Part shown: in pieces, positions 4,867 to 52,210 of the stretch
Numbering within the stretch: the first letter of the stretch is position 1
Layout of the letters: the number at the start of each line of letters is the position of its first letter
Source of the DNA: Arenicola marina
Lineage: Eukaryota; Annelida; Polychaeta; Arenicolidae
Length of the DNA stretch: 64,000 nucleotides
Reading direction: 5' to 3'
Assembly: GCA_964019135.1 (NCBI GenBank)
Contig: CAXHSH010000451.1
Location: forward strand, 62,001-126,000
Translations under genes and position numbers: made by a program
Notes under the pieces: generated by a model
The model's input: only the letters and a program-made list of their open reading frames with translations
Database searches by the model: none
Told to the model about the DNA's origin: nothing

Positions 4867-4970
4867 GGTAAAAGATAGCCCTGATACATGGCTGCTCATA
4901 CGGTGATACGCGCTGGTACCCGACGCGTACCAGCGCGTATGAGAGTCATGTATCAGGGCTAGGTAAAAGA
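4867..4970. mobile_element. 86-bp palindromic MITE with 9-bp target duplications
   Basis: Bases 4876-4961 form a near-perfect hairpin whose ends are TAGCCCTGATACATG and its complement CATGTATCAGGGCTA; inner arms TACGCGCTGGTAC/GTACCAGCGCGTA also pair. It is flanked by GGTAAAAGA at 4867-4875 and 4962-4970. The second copy is also the left target duplication of element E1, whose ends (TAGCCTGAA) are similar. The same 9-bp duplication and TAG...CTA termini suggest a non-autonomous element moved by an E1-type transposase. Confidence 0.75.
4962..4970. repeat. Left 9-bp target site duplication of E1 (GGTAAAAGA)
   Basis: Identical to 34783-34791 immediately outside the right TIR, and to 4867-4875 left of the palindromic MITE. 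Confidence 0.85.
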
Positions 4971-5243
4971 TAGCCTGAATGTTCAGACGTTACAGTCTTG
5001 ACACTTGTTCTTGTGACTGTAACGTCTGAACTCATCGCGTAGAATTGCTGTTCGGCCGCAAATTTTTGCCTTTAGCACAAATACTCACATGAATCCAAAA
5101 AAATTGATATCCTAAACTTGTTCTATGGTAACTTCTTTAGTTCCGTGAGATATGGATTCGTGCCAACTCGTCGCCAATTTTGTATAAACGACAACTTTTA
5201 ATTCTGTCACAAAAGTGTTTTGCCGCTCGCCGCCATGTTGATG
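4971..5243 (+). repeat. Left terminal inverted repeat of E1 with subterminal hairpin
   Basis: Matches the complement of 34512-34782 almost throughout, ending at GCCGCCATGTTGATG. Near the tip, arms GTTCAGACGTTACAGT (4981-4996) and ACTGTAACGTCTGAAC (5016-5031) form a 16-bp stem. The repeat probably holds the transposase binding sites and the promoter of the gene reading inward. Confidence 0.85.
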
Positions 5244-5711
5244 TGTCATTCATACCCTCAGCGCCGCTAGTGAGCGATTTGATTTGATTTGATTTGATTG
5301 GGGCTTAACGGCACTTTCAGCCTGGAAGGCTATATCGTGCCATACTGGTCAATATTAGTCAATATTAAAACCCTGAAAATCAATACATGTGTTAAGAATA
5401 AAACCATGAATGCAGTCTTTGTGGAATCGATTAATATTTTAATAAAACCCTGAACATATCAAATAAAATGATTGAGTAGTTTGTCTTAAAACCATGAAAG
5501 TGAAGAATGGCGAAACGGTAAAGTCAAAAATTGTCAGAATATAAGACCATGAGTTGGTTTTTAAAACCAAGCCCCCGAGATTAATAATTACAGCAAAATG
5601 CACTGTTTGGCAGCAAACGCTGAATATATCATATGCATTTGACTAGATTTATTGTAGATAAATGATCTAAAATCTTTTGCTCTGTTTGGCTGTAAACGTT
5701 GACTAGATATA

Positions 5712-8700
5712 TCATATGCACTTGACTAGATTTATTGCAGATAAATAATCTAAAATCTTTTGCTGTGGTATATTATTAAATAGGTCTTTTATAGTTTCTG
5801 CTCTGTAATATTGATCCCTAGTTTGTTGAAAGTCAACACACCTCAACAGAATGTGCTCCACAGTCAGGGGTTCCTGACAGGGAACACATTCGGGAGGTGG
5901 TTCTCCTTTGAGGAGGTAGCAATGGGTAAGGTACGTATGTCCAATTCGGAGTCTTTGAATGACAACGTCCCTCCGCCTACCGCGGATTCTTGGCCGTTTG
6001 GTACCCACAGTAGGCTGAAGCCGTTGCAATTTGTTGGAGGATTGCTCGTCCCAGGACGACTGCCAATGTTTAGTAATTTCGTTTTGGATGTACGGCTTCA
6101 AGTCCGAGTATGGAAACTGGACTGGAAGGACGTCGTCATTTAGAGCTTCTTTGGCGGCAGCGTCTGCTAGACTGTTGCCCTCTATGCCTATGTGGCTAGG
6201 GATCCAGCAGAACACTACCGCCTTTCCATTGCATATTAAATCATGACATTTTATAAGTATATCTTGTATTAAGGGATTTTCATATTTCCGATATTTTATG
6301 GCTTGTATACAGGATAATGAATCTGAGTATATGATAAAGTTGTCATGAAGTGATTGTTCTGCATATTCAAGTGCCATCATTAGAGCCACCGCTTCCGCGG
6401 TGTATATCGAGCATTGGTCTGGGAGGCGGTTGCTGCACTGGTGTTCACCAGCCACAGCTGCAGCGCCCACCCTGTGGGAGTCTTTTGAGCCATCGGTATA
6501 TATAGAGAAATGGTTCGGGTGTTGATTGTGAATATTATGTTTAAGTTCTATAAATTGTGATGGGTCTGTGTCAGATTTGTTGTAAGTTGTTAGTTCTAAC
6601 AGAACTTTTGGAGATTCCATTTCCCATGGTGGGATTTCTGGGAGGTGCCAGGTTCGTATATCGTTGAAATTGATATTGTATCTTGTCAAAAGGTTATTGA
6701 CTCGAATTCCAAAGGTGGGTATTGTCTTTGGTTTGTTTTCAAATAGTGTTGTAAACTTTGGGTGGAATACGTCTTCAAAGGTAGGATTATTGGGATTCGT
6801 TTTGAGCTTAAGTGCGTATTGTAGTGCTAATTTATCTCTACGGTAGTATAGAGATGGCTCAGCAGACTCCACGTACAGGCTTTCCGCAGGAGATGTGCGG
6901 AAAGCTCCCAGACATAAACGAAGTGCTTGGTTGTGCACAGGGTCCAGCATCTGCAAATATGATTTGCGTGCTGATCCGTAAATCATCGACCCATAATCCA
7001 GCCGTGACCGTATCAGGGCTCTGTAGATATTTAATAATGTCTCTCTTTCTGTTCCCCATTCTGTGTTAGATAGCACTTTAATTATATTAAGTGCTTTGGT
7101 ACATTTCTGTTTTAATTGTTTGATATGGGGTATAAAAGTCAGTTTTTTATCGAATAAAAGGCCGAGAAATTTTGTTTCTGGCACAACTGGTATTTGATCC
7201 CCATTCATTTTAAGTTCAGGTTCCGGATGGAGTTTCCGGAGTTGACAGAAGTGCATACACACTGTTTTAGTTTTTGAAAATTTAAATCCGTTCTCATCGC
7301 ACCATTGTTGTAACTTATTGAGGTTCATTTGTAGTTGCCTTTCTATTGTGTGCATATGTTTGGACCTGAAACAGGCCAAAAAATCATCAACAAATAGAGA
7401 AGGATCTATGTTGTTAGTGAGACATTTTATGATGCTGTTGATTTTAATACTAAAAAGGGTTACAGATAGGATACTGCCTTGGGGAACCCCCATCTCCTGA
7501 TCGTATACTTCGGAGAGGGTAGTTCCGACCCTTGTCTGAAATAGACGTCTGTTTAGGAATTCTTGAATAAAATTTGGCATATGACCTCTGAGTCCCATAT
7601 CATGGAGGTCTTTTAAAATACCATATTTCCATGTGGTGTCATATGCCTTTTCAAGGTCAAAGAATACTGCCACCACGTGTTCTTTTTTGATGAATGCCTC
7701 GCGTATATAGGTCTCCAATCGTATTAAATTATCGGTGGTATTTCTGTTTTGTCGAAAGCCACTCTGGAACTTAGTGATGATATTATTTGTTTCCAGAAAA
7801 TATGTAAGGCGGTTATTTATCATCTTTTCTAGTGTTTTACATATACAGCTTGTAAGAGCTATTGGTCGGTAAGAAGAAGGATTGGTGTGATCCTTCCCAG
7901 GCTTAGGGATAGGAATGACTATCGCTTTTTTCCACGATGGGGGTATTTGCCCGGTTTGCCAAATGAAGTTGAATATGTCGAGAAGAAGTTCCAAGGATGT
8001 ATCGGGTAGTTGTTTCAGGAATTTGTATGGGATATTGTCTGGCCCTGGAGAAGTGTTGTTAGTTTTCCTCAGGGCAGACTGGAGTTCCTCTATGGAGAAG
8101 AGGCTATTGTAATATTCATCATTTTTGGATTTGAAATTGGGTTTTTTCCTCTCACTAACCGCCTTGTATCTTTGGAATTTAGCCGTGTAATTTTTGGAGG
8201 AAGAATTTGTTGCAAAGGCTTTCGACAAGGTATTGGCTATTTGCACTGGTTCGGTGAGGGTTGTGTTTTCATGAATCAGGTGGTTTATGCTGTTATTTGC
8301 TTTTTTCCCACTGATCTTCTGTATGGCTCGCCACGTTTTCTTAGTGGTTGTTTTATTTCCAAGTTTGGAGACATAGTTTCTCCAGGATTCCCTTTTTGTT
8401 GTTCGTATTGTGCGGCGGGTCTGTGCTCGCACTTGTTTATATTTGAGGATATTTCCTGGAGTAGGATGTATTTGGAGTTCTCGCTGAGCCTGTTTTCGTT
8501 GTTGTACGGCCTCACGGCATTCATCGTTAAACCATGGCTTCTTTTGTATTTTGAGATTGGTCGAGGTTTTGGGAATGGTGTCTTCAGCTATTTTATGAAG
8601 TATTTCGCTGAAGAGGGCTATTGGGTCTGGTATACCTTGAAAGTTGGCTGTTGTGAGTTTTTCAAAGCACATTTTTTTAAAAGCAGTCCAGTCAGCCTTA

Positions 8701-9359
8701 TTTAGCTTCCAGTGAGCAATATTTTCATCTGGAGCGGGAAATTGGCTAGTAAGAAGGATAGGGAAGTGGTCACTGCCGTGAAGATCATCTTCCACTTTCC
8801 AGTTGAAATCAAGGCATAGACTGGGATGGGCTATAGTTAGGTCTATAGCCGTTTTGGCACCATTCCCAGGGTGTATATAAGTTATCGAGCCATCGTTGAG
8901 CAGAACGGTATTGTTTTTTAAGATAAAGTCCTCTAGCAGGCGGCCCTTGGGTTGTATGTCTTTACAACCCCATATCGTATGATGGGCATTGAAATCTCCA
9001 AGAAGTATATACGGCGCAGGAAGTTGTTTTATTATATTTTCTAGTTCTAGTCGTGTTGGACGTAAATTAGGTGGAATATAGATAGAGCACAGGGTTATGG
9101 TTTTGTGTAATGTTATTCGTATGGCCATAGCTTGTAGGTTGGTCTGCAAGGGTATTTGGCTGTGTGGAGTTTTCTCCTTTATAAGGATACTAACTCCGCC
9201 TGTGATTTTATCTCCCGTATTAAGTCCTAGATTATCATATGATGTATATCCACTAATTGTTATATCGCCTTGGTTTTTGATGAATGTTTCTTGGAGACAA
9301 AACGCTATGGGGTTGTGGTCCTGCTTTAGCAAGAGGATTTCATCCCGATTGGCTCTCAT
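5712..9359 (-). CDS. ORF2: endonuclease / reverse transcriptase / RNase H polyprotein (1215 aa)
   Basis: This protein nicks target DNA and copies the element RNA by target-primed reverse transcription. An APE-type endonuclease fills about residues 1-210, with LLGDFNAHHTIWG and GSDHFPILL near its end. The reverse transcriptase follows at about 430-720, with SYRPIALTS, QSGFRQNRNT, GVPQGSILS and a FVDDF catalytic motif. An RNase H domain comes at about 930-1060 (YTDGSKD, TAEAVALMMALEYA, YSDSLS, WIPSHIGIEGNSLADAAAK), then a C-terminal CVPC...H...C knuckle. The RNase H domain after the reverse transcriptase is typical of the I and Jockey groups. The frame reads MRANR directly after NCRG; the codon before NCRG is TGA where this family usually has tryptophan, so the true start may be this ATG or the copy has lost a few residues. 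ORF1 ends about 36 bp upstream. Confidence 0.92.
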   Translation of the reverse strand: MRANRDEILLLKQDHNPIAFCLQETFIKNQGDITISGYTSYDNLGLNTGDKITGGVSILIKEKTPHSQIPLQTNLQAMAIRITLHKTITLCSIYIPPNLRPTRLELENIIKQLPAPYILLGDFNAHHTIWGCKDIQPKGRLLEDFILKNNTVLLNDGSITYIHPGNGAKTAIDLTIAHPSLCLDFNWKVEDDLHGSDHFPILLTSQFPAPDENIAHWKLNKADWTAFKKMCFEKLTTANFQGIPDPIALFSEILHKIAEDTIPKTSTNLKIQKKPWFNDECREAVQQRKQAQRELQIHPTPGNILKYKQVRAQTRRTIRTTKRESWRNYVSKLGNKTTTKKTWRAIQKISGKKANNSINHLIHENTTLTEPVQIANTLSKAFATNSSSKNYTAKFQRYKAVSERKKPNFKSKNDEYYNSLFSIEELQSALRKTNNTSPGPDNIPYKFLKQLPDTSLELLLDIFNFIWQTGQIPPSWKKAIVIPIPKPGKDHTNPSSYRPIALTSCICKTLEKMINNRLTYFLETNNIITKFQSGFRQNRNTTDNLIRLETYIREAFIKKEHVVAVFFDLEKAYDTTWKYGILKDLHDMGLRGHMPNFIQEFLNRRLFQTRVGTTLSEVYDQEMGVPQGSILSVTLFSIKINSIIKCLTNNIDPSLFVDDFLACFRSKHMHTIERQLQMNLNKLQQWCDENGFKFSKTKTVCMHFCQLRKLHPEPELKMNGDQIPVVPETKFLGLLFDKKLTFIPHIKQLKQKCTKALNIIKVLSNTEWGTERETLLNIYRALIRSRLDYGSMIYGSARKSYLQMLDPVHNQALRLCLGAFRTSPAESLYVESAEPSLYYRRDKLALQYALKLKTNPNNPTFEDVFHPKFTTLFENKPKTIPTFGIRVNNLLTRYNINFNDIRTWHLPEIPPWEMESPKVLLELTTYNKSDTDPSQFIELKHNIHNQHPNHFSIYTDGSKDSHRVGAAAVAGEHQCSNRLPDQCSIYTAEAVALMMALEYAEQSLHDNFIIYSDSLSCIQAIKYRKYENPLIQDILIKCHDLICNGKAVVFCWIPSHIGIEGNSLADAAAKEALNDDVLPVQFPYSDLKPYIQNEITKHWQSSWDEQSSNKLQRLQPTVGTKRPRIRGRRRDVVIQRLRIGHTYLTHCYLLKGEPPPECVPCQEPLTVEHILLRCVDFQQTRDQYYRAETIKDLFNNIPQQKILDYLSAINLVKCI

Positions 9360-9395
9360 ACCTCGACAATTTCATTGTATAATGGAAGCCATGGT

Positions 9396-10685
9396 CTACG
9401 ATATGGGTGGCGTATCTGCCTTGTGTTTTCTTTTGTCCCTTCCCCTTTCTTGTGGGTCTGTCTCCATTTCCTCATCGTCCTCCTCCTCTAGTTGCGAGTA
9501 TTTGTTATGTACTTTGATGGGATCCGTTGATCCCTTGGGTGGTCGGTTTAGTTTTGCTGGTTTCGATTTGTTCAGTTTGTGGGTGGTGGGTTTTGGAGTG
9601 GATTTTGTAGGAGGTTTCTTTGCAGGTGTCTTTGTTTGAATTTCTATCATGGGCTCTGTCTGGCTGGATGTTCCTGTCTCCTCTGGGGTTTCTGTTGTAA
9701 TTGTGAATTCTGCATCTGGTGGCCAAGAATAAACAGTGTTTATCCCTATGGAAACCATGTTTGGTTTTGGTGTTGTTTCATTGGATTTGGTTTGGGTCGA
9801 GCCCGTCACTTCAGCGAATGTTTTGTTTCCAGTTACATTTGTAGTTTTACTTTCTATTATTTTTCTCGCTTCGGGATAGGATATGGAGTTTTTAGTTTTT
9901 ATTGTCTGTACCTCTTTTTCTTTTTGCCACATTGGACACTGTTTTGAGTATGCGTAGTGACTGCCTTTGCAGTTTACGCAGTGACTCGGTTTGCTGCAGG
10001 AGGTGTCTTCATGGCCCTCGTCGCCACAGCGAGCACAGGTGACTTGCCTCCTGCAGTTGTTCTTTCCGTGGCCGAAGCGTTGGCATTGGAAACAGCGTAG
10101 TGGGTTTGGTATATAGATGTCGACTGGTACACGAAGGTATCCAGCTTTTATTGTTGTAGGAGGGATGTGGGATGCAAATGTGAGAATTATAGTATTTGTT
10201 GGAATTCTTTCTCCATTTTTCGTGATTGATATCCGTTTGGCCTCCATGACATGCTGTGAGGCCAACTCGGTAACTATCTCTGTGTCAGAACACATTTGTA
10301 GGTCTCTGCACCGGATGACACCTCGGCTATTGTTGAGGGTACGGTGAGGAGTTATTGTAACTGGGATATGGAGGAGGGTCGTGGCTCGGAGGAGGTTGTC
10401 AGCATGACTCTTCCGTGTGACCTCGATGAGGAGGTCACCGGAGCGGAGTCGTTTGACATCTTTTGGTTCTCCGGCCAGACTTTGGATGGCCTTATCCAGT
10501 GCAAATGGTGACAATTTCGAAAGAGGTAAATCTGGATTTGTGGCGTGTGCCATCAAAAATCTTGAAAAATTGTCGTTTTGTTGATTTGGTTCATGTGTAG
10601 GAGAGCTTGTTCGAAGTTTCTTATTGGATCGTTCTTCTCGTGCTTTTGTTTCGGCAGGTGTGGGGTTTTTTTCTTGGGTACTCAT
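9396..10685 (-). CDS. ORF1: Gag-like nucleic-acid-binding protein with three zinc knuckles
   Basis: The open frame extends to 10805, but I prefer the ATG at 10685 (MSTQEKNPTPAE), because upstream residues look like translated leader. The protein is about 430 aa. An N-terminal polar stretch precedes an RRM-like region (IQSLAGEPKDVKRLRSGDLL and following). Three knuckles follow: CFQCQRFGHGKNNC and CARCGDEGHEDTSC fit CX2CX4HX4C, and a third, CVNCKGSHYAYSKQC, is longer. The C-terminal third is Thr/Pro/Lys-rich and ends before the ORF2 start. In related elements ORF1 packages the RNA into ribonucleoprotein particles. The frame is uninterrupted. Confidence 0.9.
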   Translation of the reverse strand: MSTQEKNPTPAETKAREERSNKKLRTSSPTHEPNQQNDNFSRFLMAHATNPDLPLSKLSPFALDKAIQSLAGEPKDVKRLRSGDLLIEVTRKSHADNLLRATTLLHIPVTITPHRTLNNSRGVIRCRDLQMCSDTEIVTELASQHVMEAKRISITKNGERIPTNTIILTFASHIPPTTIKAGYLRVPVDIYIPNPLRCFQCQRFGHGKNNCRRQVTCARCGDEGHEDTSCSKPSHCVNCKGSHYAYSKQCPMWQKEKEVQTIKTKNSISYPEARKIIESKTTNVTGNKTFAEVTGSTQTKSNETTPKPNMVSIGINTVYSWPPDAEFTITTETPEETGTSSQTEPMIEIQTKTPAKKPPTKSTPKPTTHKLNKSKPAKLNRPPKGSTDPIKVHNKYSQLEEEDDEEMETDPQERGRDKRKHKADTPPIS

Positions 10686-11244
10686 GTTGGGTTTAAATAT
10701 TTCACCGTCCGTGGTCCCCACCCACCTCGGAGCCCTCTCGGGACACTGATTCGGTGCGGTACTCCAGCACCCAGTGCCAAGGATACACAGACGGTATACT
10801 CGCATAACAAATACTTATTCTTCTGTTGGAAAAAAAGAGGTATTTGCCACTTGATTAGCCCAAGCCACCGTCCTAACAGGATCTTGTTCAGAGCAACTGA
10901 AATATGAGGTGTCTCAAAAGACTCATTGCATACGGTTGTATGAATAATAGGGTGAAAATGTTCTTGATATGATGTTGTTGAACAAGAATCCTTGGACTTG
11001 TCGTGACGAGCCGATTGATCAGACCGGGCCAAATCTGACCTCCCGTCTAGGAGAAATAAGGGTCAAACTGGTATCTTGCAGAAACAGAGTTTCCACTCAA
11101 CCAGCAGAGTCCCGTCTTCCTCCGACACGGGTTGCGAACCACGGCATACGGTTCGCCTCCATTTAGTCGCCTCTTACGACATGCAGATGTTAAACATGGA
11201 GGTGCATCGGGCCTATTCTACTTTCCCCCGAACCCGCAGGGGGC
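10686..11244 (-). promoter_or_regulatory. 5' untranslated/internal promoter region of the non-LTR element
   Basis: The element starts GCCCCCTGCGGGTTCGGGGG on the minus strand and contains GTCGTAAGAGGCGACTAAA. This tract recurs at the 5' end of several invertebrate non-LTR elements as I remember them. An internal promoter is expected here but no specific box can be proven. Confidence 0.55.
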
Positions 11245-11468
11245 CTAGTGAGCGACAGCGGAGTTATAATTCTAGAGGTCATCGTACGCTAATCTCTCTA
11301 CTCGGTCGTTCAAAAATTGCCATTACAATGTCTTTCACGATCATTTCTCGGACACATTTAACCACGATTTCCATTTAGGGGTACCAAAGTCTTTCACAAC
11401 ACGTTCCTTTGTCGGCACGATTTTGTACAAAACCGCTTGAATAATGTATTATTTATTTAGCTATGGTT

Positions 11469-11473
<5 letters not shown>

Positions 11474-11500
<27 letters not shown>
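11474..11500. repeat. (TA)n microsatellite
   Basis: An uninterrupted TA run in the 5' region of the E1 transposase gene. Confidence 0.9.
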
Positions 11501-11505
<5 letters not shown>

Positions 11506-11654
11506 TATGTATATTTTTGTAAAATCACAGCTATTATTTTTGTTGTCATGGTAACGGCTCAACGTGCATGCTAGAAAACAGCGTAGTCTTCACTAGGAGG
11601 TCTACACGTGGTCTTTACACATGTCTGGGAAAGTAGCGTGGTCTTCCATGTAAC

Positions 11655-14600
11655 ATGTCTGAGAAAGTGTGCGTCGTCTGCTCAGACGAGTTTGAGAGAC
11701 AGGCTACTGGCTACGGATTTTCTAAGTATGCAAAAGGACAATTCCCCAGTACCGTACATTTAAGAGACATAACAGAAATGTCTATTTATGAGACACTGAT
11801 CGGAAGCTAATGTTGATTCCTGATTCTGCTTCCACATGCCAATGATCGTATCTGATGAAATGTTTTCTACATCTAATACACCCCGCCCAATGCAAAAACT
11901 CGATTCTAAAATCGTATAAGCTTACTATGTATATCTACGGGTATAACTATGTTGTATTTACAAATTTGTGTGTGCCACTGTGTAGTGAGTGAAAGTTGCA
12001 TGTCGAGCTTTATCCGCCAAATCTAACCCCAGGCAACGTACAATAAGCAGAAAATCTATCAATTAAGAATCCTACTACTCATCGCCGTTTCGACTGTGAT
12101 ATGTCAAAACGTGTTTATCCGGTGACACCACAGAACTCTATCGCCGCACTGTTACTTATTACCAAGCATCGCGAAGCCCAAAAATTAATGACCTTTACCA
12201 TAAACTTGAATATTTGTTTTGGCGGGAAAGAACTCTATATGTAACTTTACAAAATTGAAATGCCGTACCTTGTGTCATAGACGCAGTTCCGTCAACCCCC
12301 CCCCCCCACCCCCCACACACACAAGTGATGACACCCTTCGCCAAGCCTCCCATCCCTTGCGATCAGTCGCAGTTTCTACACAGCTTGACATTGGTTCATT
12401 AGCATTTTAATCAATTTATTTGTTTTGCCCCTTGCGCGACTGAAACCTCTCATGTGACTTTTGTCTCATTTGACAATTCGGATGCACAAGAAGACTGTTA
12501 CGTGTGTCAGCTAGTGCCCGCCCATCCACCTCGCTATCCGCCCTGTGCACGTTAGATAACACCAATCCACTTAATTCACCCTCCGCTCCTACCCCTGACA
12601 TTTTTACATGGGAAATCCGCGGGGAGTTTCCATAGCTCAGTTGATCAATAGGTCCCAGGTTTGACAATGCGCTCCGGGCACCTGCTCTACTGGCTTCCTC
12701 AATCTCTCATCTGTGTCAATCGTCTCGCGAGGCTCCTTGGCCGTCGTATTTCTGAAAATGGGCCCAGCCAAAACAATAATTCTATCTGCCATGTCTTTCT
12801 TCCCAAAGAGTAGAGGGTTACCCCCGAGGACATGGATCTACTCTCCCTTCCTTCTCTCACTGACGCGATATGACCAAAAGTGGTTAAAGCGTCCTGAATA
12901 ACAAACCCACCAACCAATTATGCTATCAAATCCCTTGGGGGGGGGGGGGGGGGGGGAGGAGGGGCACTACCTATATTGAGGTATGTACATATGTGCCGCC
13001 CAAATGTTAGGTATATACATATTTGCCGCCAAATTGATCTTTTTTTCGCGGGCGCAAAAAGCCCCAGAAAGCTACAATTCCTATAAAATCCCATGATAAA
13101 CCTCCACATAATTGGCCACGACTGTCAGTGTCTGTTTTGTTTTGATGACCACAAAAATCTCCCAACTTTCTCGCGCTCCATATACCCTCAATGTCCTGGG
13201 CAGCACACTCCCACCGCTGTAGTATTGTAGTGCCCCCCCCCCCCCCCTCGCGGGCATCGCCTCTCCCATATATACCCAATTTATCAGATACAGATTGATA
13301 ATGCCACCCATATTACCATCTTGTTCATTTCAATGCGATGATACTTCTTATTCTATTTAAGTACAATCTATCAATTAAATAGCTCCAAAATGCAATTAAA
13401 TATAACCAACGTTACATAGCTTTACCAATCCACTTGACATTTTTACATGTTATATCGCGCTGGCCTGTAGATCAACAGGTCCCAGCTTTGACAATGCGCT
13501 CCGGGCACCTGCTCTACTGGCTTCCTCAATCTCTCATCTGTGTCAATCGTCTCGCGAGGCTCCTTGGCCGTCGTATTTCTGAAAATGGGCCCAGCAAAAA
13601 CAATAATTCTATCTGCCATGTCTTTCTTCCCAAAGAGTAGAGGGTTACCCCCGAGGACATGGATCTACTCTCCCTTCCTTCTCTCACTGACGCGATATGA
13701 CCAAAAGTGGTTAAAGCGTCCTGAATAACAAACCCACCAACCAATTATGCTATCAAATCCCTTGGGGGGGGGGGGGGGGGGGGGAGGAGGGGCACTACCT
13801 ATATTGAGGTATGTACATATGTGCCGCCCAAATGTTAGGTATATACATATTTGCCGCCAAATTGATCTTTTTTTCGCGGGCGCAAAAAGCCCCAGAAAGC
13901 TACAATTCCTATAAAATCCCATGATAAACCTCCACATAATTGGCCACGACTGTCAGTGTCTGTTTTGTTTTGATGACCACAAAAATCTCCCAACTTTCTC
14001 GCGCTCCATATACCCTCAATGTCCTGGGCAGCACACTCCCACCGCTGTAGTATTGTAGTGCCCCCCCCCCCCTCGCGGGCATCGCCTCTCCCATATATAC
14101 CCAATTTATCAGATACAGATTGATAATGCCACCCATATTACCATCTTGTTCATTTCAATGCGATGATACTTCTTATTCTATTTAAGTACAATCTATCAAT
14201 TAAATAGCTCCAAAATGCAATTAAATATAACCAACGTTACATAGCTTTACCAATCCACTTGACATTTTTACATGTTATATCGCGCTGGCCTGTAGATCAA
14301 CAGGTCCCAGCTTTGACAATGCGCTCCGGGCACCTGCTCTACTGGCTTCCTCAATCTCTCATCTGTGTCAATCGTCTCGCGAGGCTCCTTGGCCGTCGTA
14401 TTTCTGAAAATGGGCCCAGCAACAACAATCATTCTATCTGCTTTCTTCGCAAAGAGTAGAGGGTTACCCCCGAGGACATCGCTCTGCTCTCCCTTCCTTC
14501 TCTCATTGACGCGATATGACCAAAAGTGGTTAAAGCGTCCTGAATAACAAACCAACCAACTAATCATTCTATCAAAACACTTGGGGGGCACTACCTATAT

Positions 14601-19846: not shown

Positions 19847-19849
19847 CAC

Positions 19850-25800: not shown

Positions 25801-28800
25801 ACAGTCTCCAGCGTCGCCAGCCTCCAGCCTTGCCAGCTTGGGGTGAGTCCTGCCTCGCCTGCCCAGGGTGTGTCAGTCTCCAGCCTCGCCAGCTCGGGGT
25901 GTACCAGCCTCCAGCGTCACCAGCCTCCAGCCTTGCCAGCTTGGGGTGAGTCCAGCCTCGCCTGCCCAGGGTGTGTCAGTCTCCAGCCTCGCCAGCTCGG
26001 GGTGTACCAGCCTCGCCTGCTCGGGGTATGCCAGCCTCGCCTGCTCGGGGTGTGCCAGCCTCGCCTGCTCGGGGTATGCCAGCCTCGCCTGCTCGGGGTA
26101 TGCCAGCCTCGCCTTCTCGGGGTGTGCCAGCCTCGCCTGCCCGGGGTGTACCAGACTCCAGCGTCGCCAGCCTCCAGCCTTGCCAGCTTGGGGTGAGTCC
26201 TGCCTCGCCTGCCCGGGGTGTGCCAGCCTCCAGCGTCGCCAGCCTCCAGCCTTGCCAGCTTGGGGTGAGTCCTGCCTCCAGCGTCACCAGCCTCCAGCCT
26301 TGCCAGCTTGGGGTGAGTCCTGCCTCGCCTGCCCGGGGTGTGCCAGCCTCCAGCGTCGCCAGCCTCCAGCCTTGCCAGCTTGGGGTGAGTCCTGCCTCGT
26401 CTGCCCGGGGTGTGCCAGACTCCAGCGTCGCCAGCCTCCAGCCTCGCCAGCTCGGGGTGTACCAGCCTCCAGCGTCACCAGCCTCCAGCCTTGCCAGCTT
26501 GGGGTGAGTCCTGCCTCGTCTGCCCGGGGTGTACCAGACTCCAGCGTCACCAGCCTCCAGCCTTGCCAGCTTGGGGTGAGTCCAGCCTCGCCTGCCCGGG
26601 GTGTACCAGAGTCCAGCGTCACCAGCCTCCAGCCTTGCCAGCTTGGGGTGTCCTGCCTCGCCTGCCCGGGGTGTACCAGACTCCAGCGTCGCCAGCCTCC
26701 AGCCTTGCCAGCTTGGGGTGTCCTGCCTCGTCTGCCCGGGGTGTACCAGCCTCCAGCGTCACCAGCCTCCAGCCTTGCCAGCTTGGGGTGAGTCCAGCCT
26801 CGCCTGCCCAGGGTGTGTCAGTCTCCAGCCTCGCCTGCCCGGGGTGTGCCAGCCTCCAGCGTCGCCAGCCTCCAGCCTTGCCAGCTTGGGGTGAGTCCTG
26901 CCTCGCCTGCCCAGGGTGTGTCAGTCTCCAGCCTCGCCAGCTCGGGGTGTACCAGCCTCCAGCGTCACCAGCCTCCAGCCTTGCCAGCTTGGGGTGAGTC
27001 CAGCCTCGCCTGCCCAGGGTGTGTCAGTCTCCAGCCTCGCCAGCTCGGGGTGTACCAGCCTCGCCTGCTCGGGGTATGCCAGCCTCGCCTGCTCGGGGTG
27101 TGCCAGCCTCGCCTGCTCGGGGTATGCCAGCCTCGCCTGCTCGGGGTATGCCAGCCTCGCCTTCTCGGGGTGTGCCAGCCTCGCCTGCTCGGGGTGTGCC
27201 AGCCTCGCCTGCTCGGGGTATGCCAGCCTCGCCTTCTCGGGGTGTGCCAGCCTCGCCTTCTCGGGGTGTGCCAGCCTCGCCTGCTCGGGGTGTGCCAGCC
27301 TCGCCTGCTCGGGGTATGCCAGCCTCGCCTGCTCGGGGTGTGCCAGCCTCGCCTGCTCGGGGTATGCCAGCCTCGCCTTCTCGGGGTGTGCCAGCCTCGC
27401 CTGCTCGGGGTGTACCAGCCTCGCCTGCTCGGGGTATGCCAGCCTCGTCTTCTCGGGGTGTGCCAGCCTCGCCTGCTCGGGGTGTGCCAGCCTCGCCTGC
27501 TCGGGGTGTACCAGCCTCGCCTGCTCGGGGTGTACCAGCCTCGTCTGCTCGGGATGTACCAGCCACAGCCTCGCCACATGCCAGACTCAGCCTCGCCTGC
27601 CCGGGGTGCGACAGTCTCCAGCGTCACTAGCCTCCAGCCTTGCCAGCTTGGGGTGAGTCCTGCCTCGCCTGCCCGGGGTGTGTCAGTCTCCAGCCTCGCC
27701 TGCCCGGGGTGTGCCAGCCTCCAGCGTCGCCAGCCTCCAGCCTTGCCAGCTTGGGGTGAGTCCTGCCTCGCCTGCCCGGGGTGCACCAGACTCCAGCGTC
27801 GCCAGCCTCCAGCCTTGCCAGCTTGGGGTGTCCTGCCTCGTCTGCCCGGGGTGTACCAGCCTCCAGCGTCACCAGCCTCCAGCCTTGCCAGCTTGGGGTG
27901 AGTCCAGCCTCGCCTGCCCAGGGTGTGTCAGTCTCCAGCCTCGCCTGCCCGGGGTGTGCCAGCCTCCAGCGTCGCCAGCCTCCAGCCTTGCCAACTTGGG
28001 GTGAGTCCTGCCTCGCCTGCCCGGGGTGTACCAGACTCCAGCGTCGCCAGCCTCCAGCCTTGCCAGCTTGGGGTGAGTCCTGCCTCGTCTGCCCGGGGTG
28101 TGCCAGACTCCAGCGTCGCCAGCCTCCAGCCTCGCCAGCTCGGGGTGTACCAGCCTCCAGCGTCACCAGCCTCCAGCCTTGCCAGCTTGGGGTGAGTCCT
28201 GCCTCGTCTGCCCGGGGTGTACCAGACTCCAGCGTCACCAACCTCCAGCCTTGCCAGCTTGGGGTGAGTCCAGCCTCTCCTGCCCGGGGTGCGACAGTCT
28301 CCAGCGTCGCCAGCCTCCAGCCTTGCCAACTTGGGGTGAGTCCTGCCTCGCCTGCCCGGGGTGTACCAGACTCCAGCGTCGCCAGCCTCCAGCCTTGCCA
28401 GCTTGGGGTGAGTCCTGCCTCGCCTGCCCGGGGTGTGTCAGTCTCCAGCCTCGCCTGCCCGGGGTGTGCCAACCTCCAGCGTCGCCAGCCTCCAGCCTTG
28501 CCAGCTTGGGGTGAGTCCTGCCTCGCCTGCCCGGGGTGTACCAGACTCCAGCGTCGCCAGCCTCCAGCCTTGCCAGCTTGGGGTGTCCTGCCTCGTCTGC
28601 CCGGGGTGTACCAGCCTCCAGCGTCACCAGCCTCCAGCCTTGCCAGCTTGGGGTGAGTCCAGCCTCGCCTGCCCAGGGTGTGTCAGTCTCCAGCCTCGCC
28701 TGCCCGGGGTGTGCCAGCCTCCAGCGTCGCCAGCCTCAAGCCTTGCCAACTTGGGGTGAGTCCTGCCTCGCCTGCCCGGGGTGTACCAGACTCCAGCGTC

Positions 28801-31391
28801 GCCAGCCTCCAGCCTTGCCAGCTTGGGGTGAGTCCTGCCTCGTCTGCCCGGGGTGTACCAGACTCCAGCGTCACCAGCCTCCAGCCTCGCCTGCTCGGGG
28901 TGTGCCAGCCTCGCCTGCTCGGGGTGTACCAGCCTCGCCTGCTCGGGGTGTACCAGCCTCGTCTGCTCGGGATGTACCAGCCACAGCCTCGCCACATGCC
29001 AGACTCAGCCTCGCCTGCCCGGGGTGCGACAGTCTCCAGCGTCACTAGCCTCCAGCCTTGCCAGCTTGGGGTGAGTCCTGCCTCGCCTGCCCGGGGTGTG
29101 TCAGTCTCCAGCCTCGCCTGCCCGGGGTGTGCCAGCCTCCAGCGTCGCCAGCCTCCAGCCTTGCCAGCTTGGGGTGAGTCCTGCCTCGCCTGCCCGGGGT
29201 GCACCAGACTCCAGCGTCGCCAGCCTCCAGCCTTGCCAGCTTGGGGTGTCCTGCCTCGTCTGCCCGGGGTGTACCAGCCTCCAGCGTCACCAGCCTCCAG
29301 CCTTGCCAGCTTGGGGTGAGTCCAGCCTCGCCTGCCCAGGGTGTGTCAGTCTCCAGCCTCGCCTGCCCGGGGTGTGCCAGCCTCCAGCGTCGCCAGCCTC
29401 CAGCCTTGCCAACTTGGGGTGAGTCCTGCCTCGCCTGCCCGGGGTGTACCAGACTCCAGCGTCGCCAGCCTCCAGCCTTGCCAGCTTGGGGTGAGTCCTG
29501 CCTCGTCTGCCCGGGGTGTGCCAGACTCCAGCGTCGCCAGCCTCCAGCCTCGCCAGCTCGGGGTGTACCAGCCTCCAGCGTCACCAGCCTCCAGCCTTGC
29601 CAGCTTGGGGTGAGTCCTGCCTCGTCTGCCCGGGGTGTACCAGACTCCAGCGTCACCAACCTCCAGCCTTGCCAGCTTGGGGTGAGTCCAGCCTCTCCTG
29701 CCCGGGGTGCGACAGTCTCCAGCGTCGCCAGCCTCCAGCCTTGCCAACTTGGGGTGAGTCCTGCCTCGCCTGCCCGGGGTGTACCAGACTCCAGCGTCGC
29801 CAGCCTCCAGCCTTGCCAGCTTGGGGTGAGTCCTGCCTCGCCTGCCCGGGGTGTGTCAGTCTCCAGCCTCGCCTGCCCGGGGTGTGCCAACCTCCAGCGT
29901 CGCCAGCCTCCAGCCTTGCCAGCTTGGGGTGAGTCCTGCCTCGCCTGCCCGGGGTGTACCAGACTCCAGCGTCGCCAGCCTCCAGCCTTGCCAGCTTGGG
30001 GTGTCCTGCCTCGTCTGCCCGGGGTGTACCAGCCTCCAGCGTCACCAGCCTCCAGCCTTGCCAGCTTGGGGTGAGTCCAGCCTCGCCTGCCCAGGGTGTG
30101 TCAGTCTCCAGCCTCGCCTGCCCGGGGTGTGCCAGCCTCCAGCGTCGCCAGCCTCAAGCCTTGCCAACTTGGGGTGAGTCCTGCCTCGCCTGCCCGGGGT
30201 GTACCAGACTCCAGCGTCGCCAGCCTCCAGCCTTGCCAGCTTGGGGTGAGTCCAGCCTCTCCTGCCCGGGGTGCGACAGTCTCCAGCGTCGCCAGCCTCC
30301 AGCCTTGCCAACTTGGGGTGAGTCCTGCCTCGCCTGCCCGGGGTGTACCAGACTCCAGCGTCACCAGCATCCAGCCTCGCCGGCTTGGGGTGAGTCCAGC
30401 TTCGCCTGCCCGGGGTGTACCAGAGTCCAGCGTCACCAGCCTCCAGCCTTGCCAGCTTGGGGTGTCCTGCCTCGTCTGCCCGGGGTGTACCAGACTCCAG
30501 CGTCGCCAGCCTCCAGCCTTGCCAGCTTGGGGTGAGTCCTGCCTCGCCTGCCCGGGGTGTGCCAGCCTCCAGCGTCGCCAGCCTCCAGCCTTGCCAACTT
30601 GGGGTGAGTCCTGCCTCGCCTGCCCGGGGTGTACCAGAGTCCAGCGTCACCAGCCTCCAGCCTTGCCAGCTTGGGGTGAGTCCAGCCTCGCCTGCCCAGG
30701 GTGTGTCAGTCTCCAGCCTCGCCAGCTCGGGGTGTACCAGCCTCCAGCGTCACCAGCCTCCAGCCTTGCCAGCTTGGGGTGAGTCCAGCCTCGCCTGCCC
30801 AGGGTGTGTCAGTCTCCAGCCTCGCCAGCTCGGGGTGTACCAGCCTCCAGCGTCACCAGCCTCCAGCCTTGCCAGCTTGGGGTGAGTCCAGCCTCGCCTG
30901 CCCAGGGTGTGTCAGTCTCCAGCCTCGCCAGCTCGGGGTGTACCAGCCTCCAGCGTCACCAGCCTCCAGCCTTGCCAACTTGGGGTGAGTCCTGCCTCGC
31001 CTGCCCGGGGTGTGCCAGACTCGAGCGTCGCCAGCCTCCAGCCTCGCCAGCTCGGGGTGTACCAGCCTCCAGCGTCACCAGCCTCCAGCCTTGCCAGCTT
31101 GGGGTGTGCCAGCCTCGCCAGCTCGGGGTGTACCAGCCTCCAGCGTCACCAGCCTCCAGCCTTGCCAGCTTGGGGTGAGTCCCGCCTCGCCTGCCCGGGG
31201 TGTACCAGACTCCAGCGTCACCAGCCTCCAGCCTTGCCAGCTTGGGGTGAGTCCTGCCTCGCCTGCCCGGGGTGTACCAGACTCCAGCGTCACCAGCATC
31301 CAGCCTCGCCGGCTTGGGGTGAGTCCAGCCTCGCCTGCCCGGGGTGTGCCAGCCTCCAGCCTCCAGCCTCCAGCCTCCAGCCTCCAGCCTC
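19850..31391. repeat. 11.5-kb GC-rich minisatellite with higher-order structure between the convergent E1 genes
   Basis: The basic unit is 24 bp, CCTCGCCTGCTCGGGGTGTG plus CCAG, mixed with longer variants containing CCTCCAGCGTCGCCAGCCTC and TTGCCAGCTTGGGGTGAGTC. Higher-order copies are seen: offset 2397 bp (20206/22603, 20727/23124, 21516/23913), offset 2497 bp (23124/25621, 23913/26410) and offset 1418 bp (27678/29096, 28433/29851). Unit lengths are largely multiples of three and stop-poor, so long ORFs appear in all six frames; I do not call any as genes. It begins 4 bp after the transposase stop and ends 24 bp before the helicase stop. I see no AATAAA inside it. Confidence 0.93.
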
Positions 31392-31414
31392 GCAAACCGT
31401 GTGGCGCTGCCTGT

Positions 31415-34390
31415 TTAAGTCGGTGCAGCACTCTGAGCAGCGTGACAGAAGGAGCAGCACCGCACCCCTCCACAGCAGGCCCTGATGTCGGCGTCTCGTA
31501 TGCCCTCGACCTGCAAAGCGCTGAGGACCATCTCTCGTATGCAGCGCGTCCTGCTCATGCGCACCATATCAAGCATGGCCTTCTCGCATCGGGAGCTGAT
31601 CATACTCCCAGGAGGAGTGTACAGGATGGCTTCCCCTGGCATGCCATTTCGAGCGCAGCGACCGACTTCCTGCCAATACTCGATGACGGACGATGGAGGA
31701 CCCCAATGAAGCACGTACTTGATGGCGTCCACGTGCACACCAAGCCCGAATGCCACGGTGGAAATAAGGCAGCGAACTCTGGAGTCGTTCGCTCGAAACG
31801 CCTCTGGGACATGCAGTTCTGTTGTCGCGTCCAACTTGGCGTGAAAGAACAGAACGAGATCGTCCAAGTCGTGCTGCTCCAACACCTCCACCAGCTCCCT
31901 GTAAATCCTGGTGACCCTATTGATGCTTCTGTGGAATGAAAATTACAATTAATCAAATGATTATATGATATATGTGATTGGTGTTTTAGGGCCGTGTCGT
32001 CCTACAAAAAGGCCAAATTGGGTCAAGAAACATCGCTAGATGGGATTCAATAGTGCTGTCGCCTATTAAGACATGGTATGTTCACAAATACTACGGCCAA
32101 TAATGGAAATGTTGACTTTTGTACATTGATAGGGATATATAGCCTATTTTGTCGTTTCGATGGATAACCAATAAGATACTTGTCACGTCATATCTCATTT
32201 TATATGCTTACCGGCAAAAGATCACTGCCTTCGGTGTGTCGCCTTGCTTGGTGAGCAGTAACTGGGTATACCACGCCAGGTCCCCGCTGACGGTGGCCTT
32301 GCCCTCCACGCGAAAATCCACGTAAATGTTGGGCCTGCAAATGTAATGCAAGCATAAACAGCGTTAGGATTGAAATATTATGATTGTTATTTACATGATA
32401 TATATGAGGGCAAACCTTTCTGCGTAAAGGTCGAATTGTATCTATTATGGTATCCCATCAGACTGTGTGATACCATATTTTAGGCATTTAGGGTAGTTCA
32501 TACGTAATATCATTATCTAATGCTGTTATAGATTCAGGAGCATTTTCTGGAGACATGGGGTCAGGCGTTAATCACTCCTTGACAAAAATTGTTCCCCAAA
32601 ACCGATGTACAAAACTATAGAGGTATGTCGTAACGCGGTATTATTGGTGACATATTCATCAACATTTTAAACAAGATATTGGCTGACTGGGCGGATAAAG
32701 TCAAAAACGAAATAACGGGCTAACGAGAAGCCAGTCCGCTTATCGTACAGGACGATCAACTGCTTATAAGATATTTGCTTTATATGGTCTAGCCCAAAAG
32801 TATCCATGTAAGGAGCGTAGTTGTTTCACTATGTAATTTCTTAGACTGTTAAATAGGAATGAGACAAGGCTGCATGCTGAGTCCACTTCTCTTGTTCTCT
32901 TTTGTTATATGAAGTTAAATGTATAAGGTGAATCTAAGAATCTCACTGTACCTGTCGGGTACCTTGGAGACGATGTGGAACCTCGGAACTCCAACCGTCG
33001 TGCACAAGGATTCCAGGATGGCTGGCGTCACCGTGGCTGTAGCGGCAACCAGCGGGGTGGCCTTGAACATGGAGCGTAGCTCCCGTACGCGCCGGTACGA
33101 GGCCCTAAACGTGTTACCCCTGTTGATGTACAAAATAAGTTAGCTATGGGAATATTTTTTATATGTGTATAGCTGCTAAATAAGAATCTTGAACTATGTG
33201 ATATGTTTGCGGTTTCCGGCAGTGTCTGTCTGTGTGAAGATTAGGGATACATACCATGTTACGACACAATGCGCCTCATCAATGGCTCAAACGTGTTACC
33301 CCAGTTGATGTACAAAATAAGTTAGCTATGGCAATAATTTTTATATGTGTATAGCTGCTAAATAAGCAGTTTCCGGCAGTGTCTGTCTGTGTGAAGATTA
33401 GGGATACATACCATGTTACGACACAATGCGCCTCGTCAATGGCAAGCAGGCAGATTCTGTCTCTGAGGGACAGGAAGATGTCACGCCAGAAGGAGTCCGA
33501 TACGATCTCGGGGGAGCAGAATATCAAGGAGAACCTCCCATCACGTATACCTGTCAAAGAGAAGGAAGAGAACAATGGAAACGATTGGTATATGTAAGAC
33601 CATTTCAACATATATGAATACTATCATATAAGACTTACAATAATGATTTTAAAGAGCCAGATTGATGGGATTATTCTCAAAGTCCATAAACTCTTTACCT
33701 TGAACTTCTTCTTCTTTCATTTCACTTTTCCTCAGAATGGCCACAGCCGAGACGCCTCTGCTCTCCCAGCGGTTAACTTGATCACGCATAAGGTTTCGCA
33801 GCGGGGACACTATGATGGAGATGTGGCGTTTCCCAGGCTGGTAAAAGAAACGGGTCGGTTGTACATATAATGGTTTGCTGAAATGACTACTTATGGCGCT
33901 AAAGTTAAAATGAATCTATATGCCTTAAAATTAATAAATGGTTTGTGGTATTTGTAACCTCTATGGCCAATAAAAAATTACGCCTCTTACCATGTAAAGA
34001 TTGGCATAACTGGAAACTTTAAAGCGCCATAGAAATTCATATTTGTACAATATTTGCCCTAAACACGATTTTTTTCGATTGCGTGTGTTGTTGCCATATG
34101 AAACATTTATGTTTACGTGTTATGCACATTTTCGATGTAGTATCCTGATGTCCTATGAAAACGTACTTGATTTTTATATAGTGGGGATTGAATGAGCGAT
34201 AATAGGGAAATACCTCGAGCAGATCCTTCATGAGCGGGGGCAGCGCGAAGACGTCACTCTTGCCGTGTCCCGTTGGTAGGAGGCAAAATACATCCTCTCC
34301 CGAGTGTAGGTGATCTATGGCGCTGAGCTGCTCCGCATTGTGCACATACGGCAGCCGCAGTGCTTCTGAAACTGTTTTCACGAGGTCCAT
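31415..34390 (-). CDS. E1 RecQ-like DEAH helicase (6 exons, predicted 419 aa)
   Basis: Exons on the minus strand: 34390-34214, 33837-33699, 33550-33412, 33119-32952, 32334-32212, 31928-31415. All junctions are GT/AG, the phases agree and the total is 1260 nt. Helicase motifs come in order: I LLPTGHGKSD, Ia IIVSPLRNLMRDQV, II AIDEAHC, III TATVTP, V STVAFGLGVHVDAIKYVLHWG region, VI QEVGRCARNG. This is the ATP-dependent 3'-5' helicase core of the RecQ group; no RQC or HRDC domain follows. The short tail is Cys-rich (ACCGG, CCSFCH) and may bind zinc. Exons 3 and 4 (139 and 168 nt) have exactly the same lengths as in the E2 copy, which supports the model. It converges on the transposase gene and probably unwinds DNA during excision or gap repair of the element; that role is inferred. 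Confidence 0.88.
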
Positions 34391-34511
34391 CTTACACGTG
34401 GTGTATTCAGGTCTGCAACGTGTTGCTTACTGATGTCAATGCTGAACGTACAAAACTATACGTACAAAGTTACCTCTAACATCGCTTTGGGCCGTGGCGC
34501 CACCTTCTGGG

Positions 34512-34782
34512 CATCAACATGGCGGCGAGCGGCAAAACACTTTTGTGACAGAATTAAAAGTTGTCGTTTATACAAAATTGGCGACGAGTTGGCACGAATC
34601 CATATCTCACGGAACTAAAGAAGTTACCATAGAACAAGTTTAGGATATCAATTTTTTTGGATTCATGTGAGTATTTGTGCTAAAGGCAAAAATTTGCGGC
34701 CGAACAGCAATTCTACGCGATGAGTTCAGACGTTACAGTCAGCATCAGACTGTCAAACTGTAACGTCTGAACGTTCAGGCTA
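34512..34782 (-). repeat. Right terminal inverted repeat of E1 with subterminal hairpin
   Basis: Inverted copy of 4971-5243. The same 16-bp stem is at 34724-34739 and 34757-34772, but the loop differs from the left one. The helicase ATG at 34390 is about 120 bp inside this repeat, so the repeat is its likely promoter. Confidence 0.85.
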
Positions 34783-34791
34783 GGTAAAAGA
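34783..34791. repeat. Right 9-bp target site duplication of E1 (GGTAAAAGA)
   Basis: It directly follows the CTA end of the right TIR and matches 4962-4970. It is followed by TAG in the flanking DNA, so a 12-base match is visible at the left side. Confidence 0.85.
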
Positions 34792-44848: not shown

Positions 44849-45175
44849 TAGACGCGAGTGCCTATTCCACCACGGGGGGTTACATAGGCACGATAGAATG
44901 CAGGCAAAAATCCTGGGGGGATACAGCTCAAGACGCGCACCTGGTTTGCCCTTCGGACTGCGGGGGCCAAACTTACTTTTTTTTATGTAGCTTCCATAAA
45001 TCTCGCCCGCACGGGGGGTTGCAGCCACACAGCAAACACTTTTACCATCAAAAGAGACAAATATTCGTGCACGAAACAGACAGTTCGCCGTTTGTTTCCA
45101 ATATGGCTGAAGCGGAGTCATGCGCCGCTTCTTCGTACACGGAATCTAAACAACGAAATAATTCGCAATGCCCAG
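44849..45175 (+). repeat. Left terminal inverted repeat of E2
   Basis: It matches the complement of 52282-52605. It includes an ATG at 45103 and the first 24 codons of the helicase. Confidence 0.88.
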
Positions 45176-48066: not shown

Positions 48067-48287
48067 CACGCCGACGCCAGATGTCTCTGTCGACGGAGAG
48101 TTTTTTTCAGTTTTCGTCCCATTTTGGTGGTATCGCGGCAGTTCACAGAGGCCGTGAAATCCTGGTATCCCCTATGTGTCCTTGGGGGCGCGTACGAAAA
48201 TAGATCGTCGGGGGAAAACTCGGTGACGAGGGTTCGCACGTCGGCGTCATGTTTCCGGTCAGTCTTAGGGCCCCTGAGGGGGGGTAG

Positions 48288-48440
48288 CCATGTCGCGTGT
48301 CGATTTTAAGAAAAAGGTCCATGTCGCGTGTCGATTTTAAGAAAAGTTCCATGTCGCGTGTCGCTAACTATTATGTCGCATGTCGATTCTAAGAAAACCC
48401 CAATGTCGCGTTGTCGATTTTAAAAATCGCCGTGTCGCCG
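48288..48440. repeat. ~30-bp minisatellite at the convergence point of the E2 genes
   Basis: CATGTCGCGTGTCGATTTTA, AGAAAA and variants are repeated about five times between the helicase stop (48066) and the last transposase exon remnant (48850). It is unrelated in sequence to the E1 satellite but in the equivalent place. Confidence 0.8.
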
Positions 48441-48849
48441 TGTCGAAAAAGCCCCTATGGGGCCCTAGTCTTCCTGGCGGCCCCGTGCTGGCGGAGACCG
48501 AAGCCTTGTCGGAAAGTACCGTCGAACGTTCTGCCAAATTCTCCCCCGAGGCGGCTGCAGCGGCGCACCTGGTCGGGACCGTATTGGCCGCGGGATCGAC
48601 CAAGCATTTCTGAAAAAAATTGTGTTCTTTTCAATACTGAAGGTGGCGAACACTTTTGTCCCCATACACGCTCTCAACACATGTCCAGGTGCTTGTACCG
48701 ATGTGTGCCTCTTTGTACCGATCTAGCGCAATACAATTTATACCAAGTTTCGGGCATTGTGTTTTAGTTTACCAATTCAATGATAACACACAAAGGACGA
48801 ATCATTTGGGCTATGAACACCACCAACCTTTGAAGTCATGGTTTAGAAA

Positions 48850-51288: not shown

Positions 51289-51488
51289 NNNNNNNNNNNN
51301 NNNNNNNNNNNNNNNNNNNNNNNNNNNNNNNNNNNNNNNNNNNNNNNNNNNNNNNNNNNNNNNNNNNNNNNNNNNNNNNNNNNNNNNNNNNNNNNNNNNN
51401 NNNNNNNNNNNNNNNNNNNNNNNNNNNNNNNNNNNNNNNNNNNNNNNNNNNNNNNNNNNNNNNNNNNNNNNNNNNNNNNNNNNNNNNN
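51289..51488. other. Assembly gap (200 N)
   Basis: A run of exactly 200 N flanked by repeats. True length unknown. Confidence 0.99.
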
Positions 51489-52095: not shown

Positions 52096-52144
52096 CGACG
52101 CCTTTCAAGAGAATTATTGAAAACTCATTTCACTTCATTTATAC

Positions 52145-52210
52145 CTATTGAAGCCTCCGTTCGGTCGTCGTTCAAACTCCTCGTTACAAATACGACACAC
52201 CACCAGACAT
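52145..52210 (-). pseudogene. Remnant of exon 1 of the E2 transposase
   Basis: The minus strand encodes CRICNEEFERRPNGGFN, homologous to CVVCSDEFERQATGYGFSK of E1. The splice donor (CAATAG, then GTATAA) sits at the same codon position as in E1. A small deletion after the ATG (GGTG in place of six bases) shifts the frame. This exon lies about 70 bp inside the right TIR and is useful evidence for the E1 exon-1 model. Confidence 0.7.

What the first reader, a model, noticed from the sequence alone, without database searches (positions are those of the whole stretch)
4962..34791. A near-complete 29.8-kb DNA transposon with TIRs, a 9-bp target duplication and two convergent intact genes
Seen: inverted 272-bp ends 29.5 kb apart, TAG...CTA tips, and GGTAAAAGA directly outside both. 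Inside, a DUF6589/PHD protein and a RecQ-like helicase splice into unbroken frames. Known (from memory): Academ elements with a helicase have 9-10-bp duplications. Inference: E1 is an autonomous, unusually large member; about 18 kb of it is satellite and later insertions.
Basis: partly seen in the sequence, partly recalled or inferred. Interest (0 to 1): 0.92.

Follow-up and report, generated by a model that had tools for sequence, protein, structure and literature searches.

The report
Giant helicase-carrying animal jumping gene
This is a very large DNA transposon, probably from an invertebrate animal, with both of its genes still open: a transposase that seems to carry a chromatin-reading module and a RecQ-like helicase; it looks like a new member of a recently named family, with a few unusual details worth testing.

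Summary
Confirmed. E1 spans 4971-34782 (29,812 bp): TAGCC...GGCTA tips, 271-273-bp inverted ends (230 bp identical), 9-bp GGTAAAAGA duplication. Two convergent genes splice into open frames: a 1115-aa DUF6589 protein (8 exons) and a 419-aa RecQ-like helicase (6 exons). The only three transposase hits are amphioxus and acorn worm. AcademH is published as Academ with helicase and 9-10-bp duplications; E1 fits. A decayed second element, E2 (44849-52605, TSD GCTTGGTGG), has the same layout. About 17.5 kb of E1 is satellite plus a LINE.

(2) DUF6589 is interrupted, between the presumed second D and the E, by a cassette resembling ING-type PHD fingers, suggesting chromatin targeting. (3) The inverted ends differ in 9 of 273 columns, 8 of them in a 17-column hairpin loop. 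(4) The satellite lies between the two stop codons.

Not tested: other copies and the empty site (genome search did not complete), expression, comparison with named Academ sequences (founding paper not held), the fold (model unusable). New member of a known kind.

The parts
4867..4875 (.). third copy of GGTAAAAGA, left of the mini-element
4876..4961 (.). 86-bp palindromic mini-element TAGCCCTGATACATG...CATGTATCAGGGCTA, flanked by GGTAAAAGA on both sides, abutting E1
   Evidence: folds as one hairpin, -34.8 with DNA parameters
4962..4970 (.). E1 left 9-bp target-site duplication, shared with the mini-element
4971..34782 (.). E1, AcademH-type transposon, 29,812 bp
4971..5243 (+). left TIR with subterminal hairpin
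5278..11244 (-). LINE inserted in E1 (endonuclease, RT and RNase H by Pfam; first ORF with zinc-knuckle-like Cys motifs by eye), bounded by CTAGTGAGCGA at 5267-5277 and 11245-11255
11655..19846 (+). transposase gene: exons 11655-11725, 15112-16104, 16406-16676, 17025-18018, 18331-18606, 18832-19062, 19225-19356, 19467-19846; 1115 aa, DUF6589 interrupted by a PHD-like cassette
12640..15012 (.). unit of about 830 bp in nearly three tandem copies inside transposase intron 1
17994..18878 (+). ING/YNG1-like PHD finger plus second Cys-rich finger (residues about 769-884), spans two introns
19862..31391 (.). GC-rich (69%) CCAGCCTC satellite with blocks repeated at 2.4-kb spacing, between the two stop codons
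31415..34390 (-). RecQ-like helicase gene: exons 34390-34214, 33837-33699, 33550-33412, 33119-32952, 32334-32212, 31928-31415; 419 aa
34512..34782 (-). right TIR
34783..34791 (.). E1 right 9-bp target-site duplication GGTAAAAGA
44849..52605 (.). E2, second element of the same layout, 7,757 bp, TSD GCTTGGTGG at 44840-44848 and 52606-52614; contains a 200-base run of N
45208..48066 (+). E2 helicase, 48% identical to E1's over 408 aligned columns; stop in the last exon, and my exon model loses frame at exon 5
48494..49344 (-). E2 transposase remnant matching residues 872-1028 of E1's

Best explanation
E1 is a full-length member of the AcademH lineage of DNA transposons with both genes open, swollen by a satellite and a LINE. 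Shown: long TIRs, 9-bp duplication, two convergent genes starting a few hundred bases inside the two ends (LINE taken off), collinear homologues, and a second, decayed element of the same layout. Inferred: the DUF6589 protein is the DDE-type transposase (presumed D468, D618, E982) that binds the TIRs and hairpin tips and makes 9-bp staggered joins; the RecQ-like helicase opens DNA or helps repair at donor or target; the near-identical TIRs supply both promoters, as in maize MuDR; and the PHD-like cassette inside the catalytic domain biases integration towards H3K4-methylated chromatin.
For: TIR and TSD. Transposase hits: Branchiostoma floridae (41% identity, 97% of the query region), B. lanceolatum (42%, 84%), Ptychodera flava (33%, 97%), 3 of 3 hits; WDN, CxGDxLSIER and NIxxDLxxEFLNN shared by all 4 aligned rows. 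DUF6589 at 103.3 bits, cut-off 27. Helicase: DEAD and Helicase_C above cut-off; best PDB matches are chains named ATP-dependent DNA helicase, RecQ and WRN; the 5 best database hits are 35-37% identical and 378-457 aa long. In a 29-row tree E1 and E2 helicases pair (100/99). AcademH with helicase and 9-10-bp TSD: PMC10045372 passages. E2 repeats the layout with its own 9-bp TSD.
Against: No second genomic copy of E1 and no empty site was seen; no expression data; exon junctions are my choice. The predicted structure of the B. floridae homologue is unusable (mean pLDDT 35.2), so an RNase H fold is not shown. No Pfam PHD model matched the E1 cassette alone (0 families at E 1), and in the homologues only sub-threshold ones did; the PHD reading rests on PDB sequence matches, which also include KDM5, AIRE and CHD4 fingers, some of which (recalled) read unmethylated H3K4. 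No named Academ sequence was compared. Long identical stretches in the satellite could be an assembly artefact.
Confidence: 0.87

Rival explanations
1. It is a member of a different superfamily with MuDR-like architecture (9-bp duplication, about 220-bp TIRs, two convergent genes), not Academ.
For: MuDR has two convergently transcribed genes, ~215-bp TIRs and promoters within the TIRs (PMC3440606 passages); the 9-bp duplication of MuDR is recalled.
Against: No Mutator transposase domain among Pfam hits of the spliced protein at E 0.1; DUF6589, and a RecQ-like helicase as second gene.
Confidence: 0.05
2. The two TIRs belong to two separate elements or to a misassembly, and the genes lie between them by chance.
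For: Only one E1 copy is seen; the window holds a run of N (in E2) and a satellite with long identical stretches.
Against: Same 9-bp duplication on both sides, 230 bp of identity, and remains of the same gene pair inside E2's own TIR and TSD.
Confidence: 0.03
3. The triple GGTAAAAGA arose by local duplication or conversion of the boundary, not by two insertions at one site.
For: The right flank continues TAGC, so the boundary repeat is in fact 13 bp (GGTAAAAGATAGC), present three times.
Against: The mini-element has its own perfect inverted tips that differ from E1's after TAGCC and end exactly at the duplications.
Confidence: 0.2

Closest known systems
AcademH transposons (Kojima 2020, Mob DNA 11:15; not held, seen only as a citation)
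   Same: Carry a helicase, make 9-10-bp duplications (PMC10045372 passage), reported from animals and fungi (title in the reference list).
   Different: 29.8 kb, by satellite and LINE. Whether published AcademH transposases hold a PHD-like cassette inside the catalytic region, and whether their helicase is a separate convergent gene, could not be checked.
AcademX
   Same: Same superfamily by publication.
   Different: Nuclease and 3-4-bp duplications; no such nuclease among the E1 proteins and ORFs scanned.
Maize MuDR
   Same: Long TIRs, two convergently transcribed genes, promoters in the TIRs (PMC3440606 passages; for E1 the promoters are inferred); 9-bp duplication (recalled).
   Different: No Mutator transposase domain found here; the second gene here is a helicase.
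RAG1/RAG2 recombinase
   Same: DNA-cutting enzyme coupled to a PHD finger; RAG2's binds H3K4me3 (PMC8355894 passage).
   Different: Here the cassette interrupts the transposase domain itself; ligand binding is untested.

Membership tests
AcademH | 9- or 10-bp target-site duplication | tested here: met
   GGTAAAAGA (E1) and GCTTGGTGG (E2); rule from PMC10045372 passage
AcademH | encodes a helicase | tested here: met
AcademH | Academ-type transposase | tested here: inconclusive
   DUF6589 above Pfam cut-off, but DUF6589 = Academ is recalled; no Academ reference sequence was available
AcademH | no nuclease of the AcademX kind | tested here: inconclusive
   No such Pfam hit in the two spliced proteins or in 6 of the 11 E1 ORFs of 150 aa or more lying wholly outside the satellite; the other 5 and shorter frames were not scanned
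AcademH | groups with named AcademH proteins in a tree | not testable with these tools
   Repbase/Dfam not held; the helicase tree holds database hits, not named AcademH entries
Mutator (MuDR) | Mutator-type (MULE) transposase domain | tested here: not met
   no such Pfam hit in the spliced transposase at E 0.1
RecQ helicases | RecQ-type DEAD + Helicase_C core | tested here: met
   the related P0002, not E1 itself, was run on NCBIfam and passes TIGR00614
RecQ helicases | RQC and HRDC domains | tested here: not met
   absent; not present in every RecQ-family protein (recalled)

The most novel reading that the evidence does not exclude
A RAG-like logic in one polypeptide: the AcademH-type transposase of amphioxus, acorn worms and this animal carries an H3K4me3-reading, ING-type PHD finger within its catalytic domain and so steers a giant helicase-assisted transposon to active promoters; related elements also integrate next to each other's ends, re-using the same 9-bp target.
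Probability: 0.25. Interest if true: 0.75.

Novelty: new member of a known kind. Interest (0 to 1): 0.5.

Why it matters
Helicase-carrying transposons are little explored at the bench (my knowledge). E1 offers a candidate with both genes open and both ends present, beside a decayed cousin that shows the layout is not a one-off. A histone-tail reader inside a transposase would give a direct, testable link between chromatin state and integration outside the RAG system. The shared duplication suggests that related ends may attract insertion.

Tried and rejected
Viral contigs: no relative of the transposase (89 pattern stretches, 0 confirmed); a hairpin DNA pattern gave 7 stretches, which I did not examine and take, without a computed expectation, as chance. 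Structure of the B. floridae homologue: mean pLDDT 35.2, pTM 0.24; not searched against any library. A protein search from the 4-row alignment A1 listed only 5 proteins, all Branchiostoma, without the Ptychodera protein that was itself a row of the query; only the 7,994 candidates sharing most words were scored, so more relatives may exist. The Kojima 2020 paper is not held. Searches of the held library: 'DUF6589' 0 papers; 'PHD finger' + 'DNA transposon' + 'transposase' + 'Academ' 4 papers, seen as listing with the starts of abstracts only; 'AcademH' 7 papers, of which I read passages of 3. I therefore make no claim that the PHD insertion is unpublished. Considered and rejected: that E2's tip loop is as variable as E1's (it differs by a G-run only; E2's differences cluster elsewhere, by eye); that the right flank beginning TAGC is another element's end (no inverted partner at 12 of 14 or better in the window); that 9 bp plus TAG is a general target rule (E2's right flank is TTGAG). 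First self-BLAST timed out and was repeated with the satellite masked. One search had a region beyond the protein's end and was repeated with the right length. A look in PMC12730594 for Academ found nothing.
Full report
Observation. The inverted ends, tips and duplication are as described. The repeat finder gives arms 5014-5243 and 34512-34741, 230 nt and 100% complementary, 29,268 nt apart. Reading outward, the left end is GGTAAAAGA|TAGCCTGAATGTTCAG... and the right end ...CTGAACGTTCAGGCTA|GGTAAAAGA. The element proper is 4971-34782, 29,812 bp. A scan for any 9-bp direct repeat with at least 11 of 12 matching inverted tips (starts in the satellite and 9-mers present over 40 times left out) gave 6 hits: the mini-element, E1, E2, and 3 combinations in one palindromic AT-rich repeat at 36331-36511. 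Twenty single-base shuffles of the non-satellite sequence, with the TAG tip and a looser 8 of 12, gave 1 hit in total; the real window under that looser rule gave the same 6.

Genes. The left gene (+ strand) splices from 8 exons, 11655-19846, to 1115 aa without stops; the right gene (- strand) from 6 exons, 34390-31415, to 419 aa without stops. All 12 introns are GT-AG, but I picked junctions for that, so the independent support is homology. The transposase query (residues 240-1115) found 3 proteins: Branchiostoma floridae (41% identity, 97% cover, E 1.7e-188), B. lanceolatum (42%, 84%) and Ptychodera flava (33%, 97%); only the 7,994 candidates sharing most words were scored. The helicase query found 1,116 proteins, 120 listed; the first is unnamed, then come Ptychodera flava, Glandiceps talaboti, Tubulanus polymorphus and B. 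lanceolatum, these five at 35-37% identity.

Transposase anatomy. By eye, an N-terminal pair of Cys pairs (CVVC, CLSC); an acidic stretch (60% D/E over residues 119-240); then DUF6589 (PF20231, 103.3 bits, cut-off 27). WDN, CxGDxLSIER and NIxxDLxxEFLNN are shared by all 4 aligned proteins; I take D468, D618 and E982 as the DDE triad, which is inference from the look of the motifs. Scanned in pieces, the part before the cassette matches profile positions 7-244 and the part after it 282-385, so residues about 769-884 interrupt the domain. That stretch matches YNG1 (2jmi, E 6.7e-9) and ING1-ING5 PHD fingers in the PDB, among 28 distinct sequences at E 0.01 that also include KDM5, AIRE and CHD4 fingers. 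The Tyr, Met and Trp that line the H3K4me3 cage in ING proteins (recalled) align with Tyr, Met and Trp in E1; in B. lanceolatum the Tyr is Phe. A profile of the 4 rows has the same best match, YNG1, at 4.9e-13, and one short B. lanceolatum relative is named ING4 by its source. P. flava has one finger where the other three have two. Against this, no Pfam model hit the E1 cassette and only sub-threshold PHD hits appeared in two homologues (15 and 18.7 bits); AIRE- and CHD4-type fingers read unmethylated H3K4 (recalled), so the ligand is open.

Helicase anatomy. DEAD (77.5 bits) and Helicase_C (56.8 bits), no RQC or HRDC; best PDB matches are 1oyw, 4tmu (RecQ) and WRN chains. A tree of 29 rows (E1, E2 and 27 of the 120 listed hits: P0001-P0016, of which 14 are named to animals and 2 unnamed, and 11 RecQ-type rows, of which 3 are named to bacteria) pairs E1 with E2 (100/99) and separates the 18 from the 11 (100/100); treekit warns of long branches, and no animal WRN, BLM or other cellular RecQ was included, so it does not by itself show a transposon-only clade. 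Fifteen of those 16 hits are 311-457 aa long, P0013 is 631. E1 and E2 helicases are 48% identical, so they are two families.

E2 as internal replicate. 44849-52605 has TAGACGCGAG...CTCGCGTCTA tips and GCTTGGTGG on both sides. It carries the helicase from the left, with a stop in the last exon and a frame loss at exon 5 in my model, and, convergent, a transposase remnant of residues 872-1028. It has a 200-base run of N.

Later history of E1. A LINE with two long ORFs sits at 5278-11244 with an 11-bp duplication CTAGTGAGCGA. Intron 1 holds nearly three copies of a unit of about 830 bp. The satellite (19862-31391, 69% GC against 44.6% elsewhere, many identical 100-mers at spacings of 2,397, 4,894 and 2,497 bp) begins 15 bp after one stop codon and ends 23 bp before the other. 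E2 also has a small tandem repeat (48288-48446) between its two gene 3' ends. Convergent transcription as a driver of repeat growth is only an idea.

The shared duplication. An 86-bp palindrome TAGCCCTGATACATG...CATGTATCAGGGCTA lies at 4876-4961 between a third GGTAAAAGA and E1's own left one. The simplest account is two insertions of related elements at one 9-bp target, the second using the copy made by the first; the order cannot be told. Because the right flank also begins TAGC, each insertion keeps the 13-mer GGTAAAAGATAGC at its border, so the target renews itself. E2 does not share this feature, so it is one case only.

Hairpin tips. Both E1 ends fold a stem of 16-17 bp just inside the tip; E2 has one of 8 bp. 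Of 273 TIR columns 9 differ (gaps counted), 8 of them in columns 27-43, the loop; 0 of 100,000 random placements put 8 or more of 9 in any 20 columns. Palindrome-centre revision or hairpin processing would explain it; one element cannot decide, and E2's loop does not show it.

How it works, most likely. The predicted starts lie 706 bp (LINE and one duplication taken off) and 392 bp inside the two ends, so the near-identical TIRs may supply both promoters, as documented for MuDR (PMC3440606 passages). The transposase would bind the TIRs, cut, and join with a 9-bp stagger; the longer duplication of AcademH has been linked in print with its helicase (PMC10045372 passage). PHD targeting is inferred by analogy with RAG2 (PMC8355894 passage). 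None of these steps was tested.

Verdict. It is a new member of a known kind, made interesting by the embedded PHD-like cassette, the re-used target and the variable hairpin loop.

Noticed in passing
44840-52614: Second, decayed AcademH-type element with its own 9-bp duplication; 48% identical helicase; transposase mostly lost.
   Followed up: yes
1054-3894: Two consecutive long ORFs (736 and 209 aa) with no Pfam family above its cut-off; may be another mobile-element protein.
   Followed up: partly
57071-61252: Three successive ORFs, the first with C2H2 zinc fingers, looking by eye like a type-B DNA polymerase gene of a mobile element (recalled resemblance; Pfam gave zinc fingers in the first, nothing in the second, weak sub-threshold nuclease hits in the third). 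Described only.
   Followed up: partly
19862-31391: 11.5-kb satellite placed between two convergent stop codons, with long identical stretches at 2.4-kb spacing.
   Followed up: partly
48288-48446: Small tandem repeat between the convergent gene ends of E2, mirroring the satellite's place in E1.
   Followed up: no
36331-36511: Palindromic CTATAG-rich repeat that mimics 9-bp-duplication elements in scans.
   Followed up: no
43621-44107 and 54751-55226: 94%-identical direct repeat either side of E2, about 11 kb apart.
   Followed up: no
33107-33443: Duplication of an exon-intron border within the helicase gene (83% identical copies); the model uses one donor and one acceptor.
   Followed up: partly
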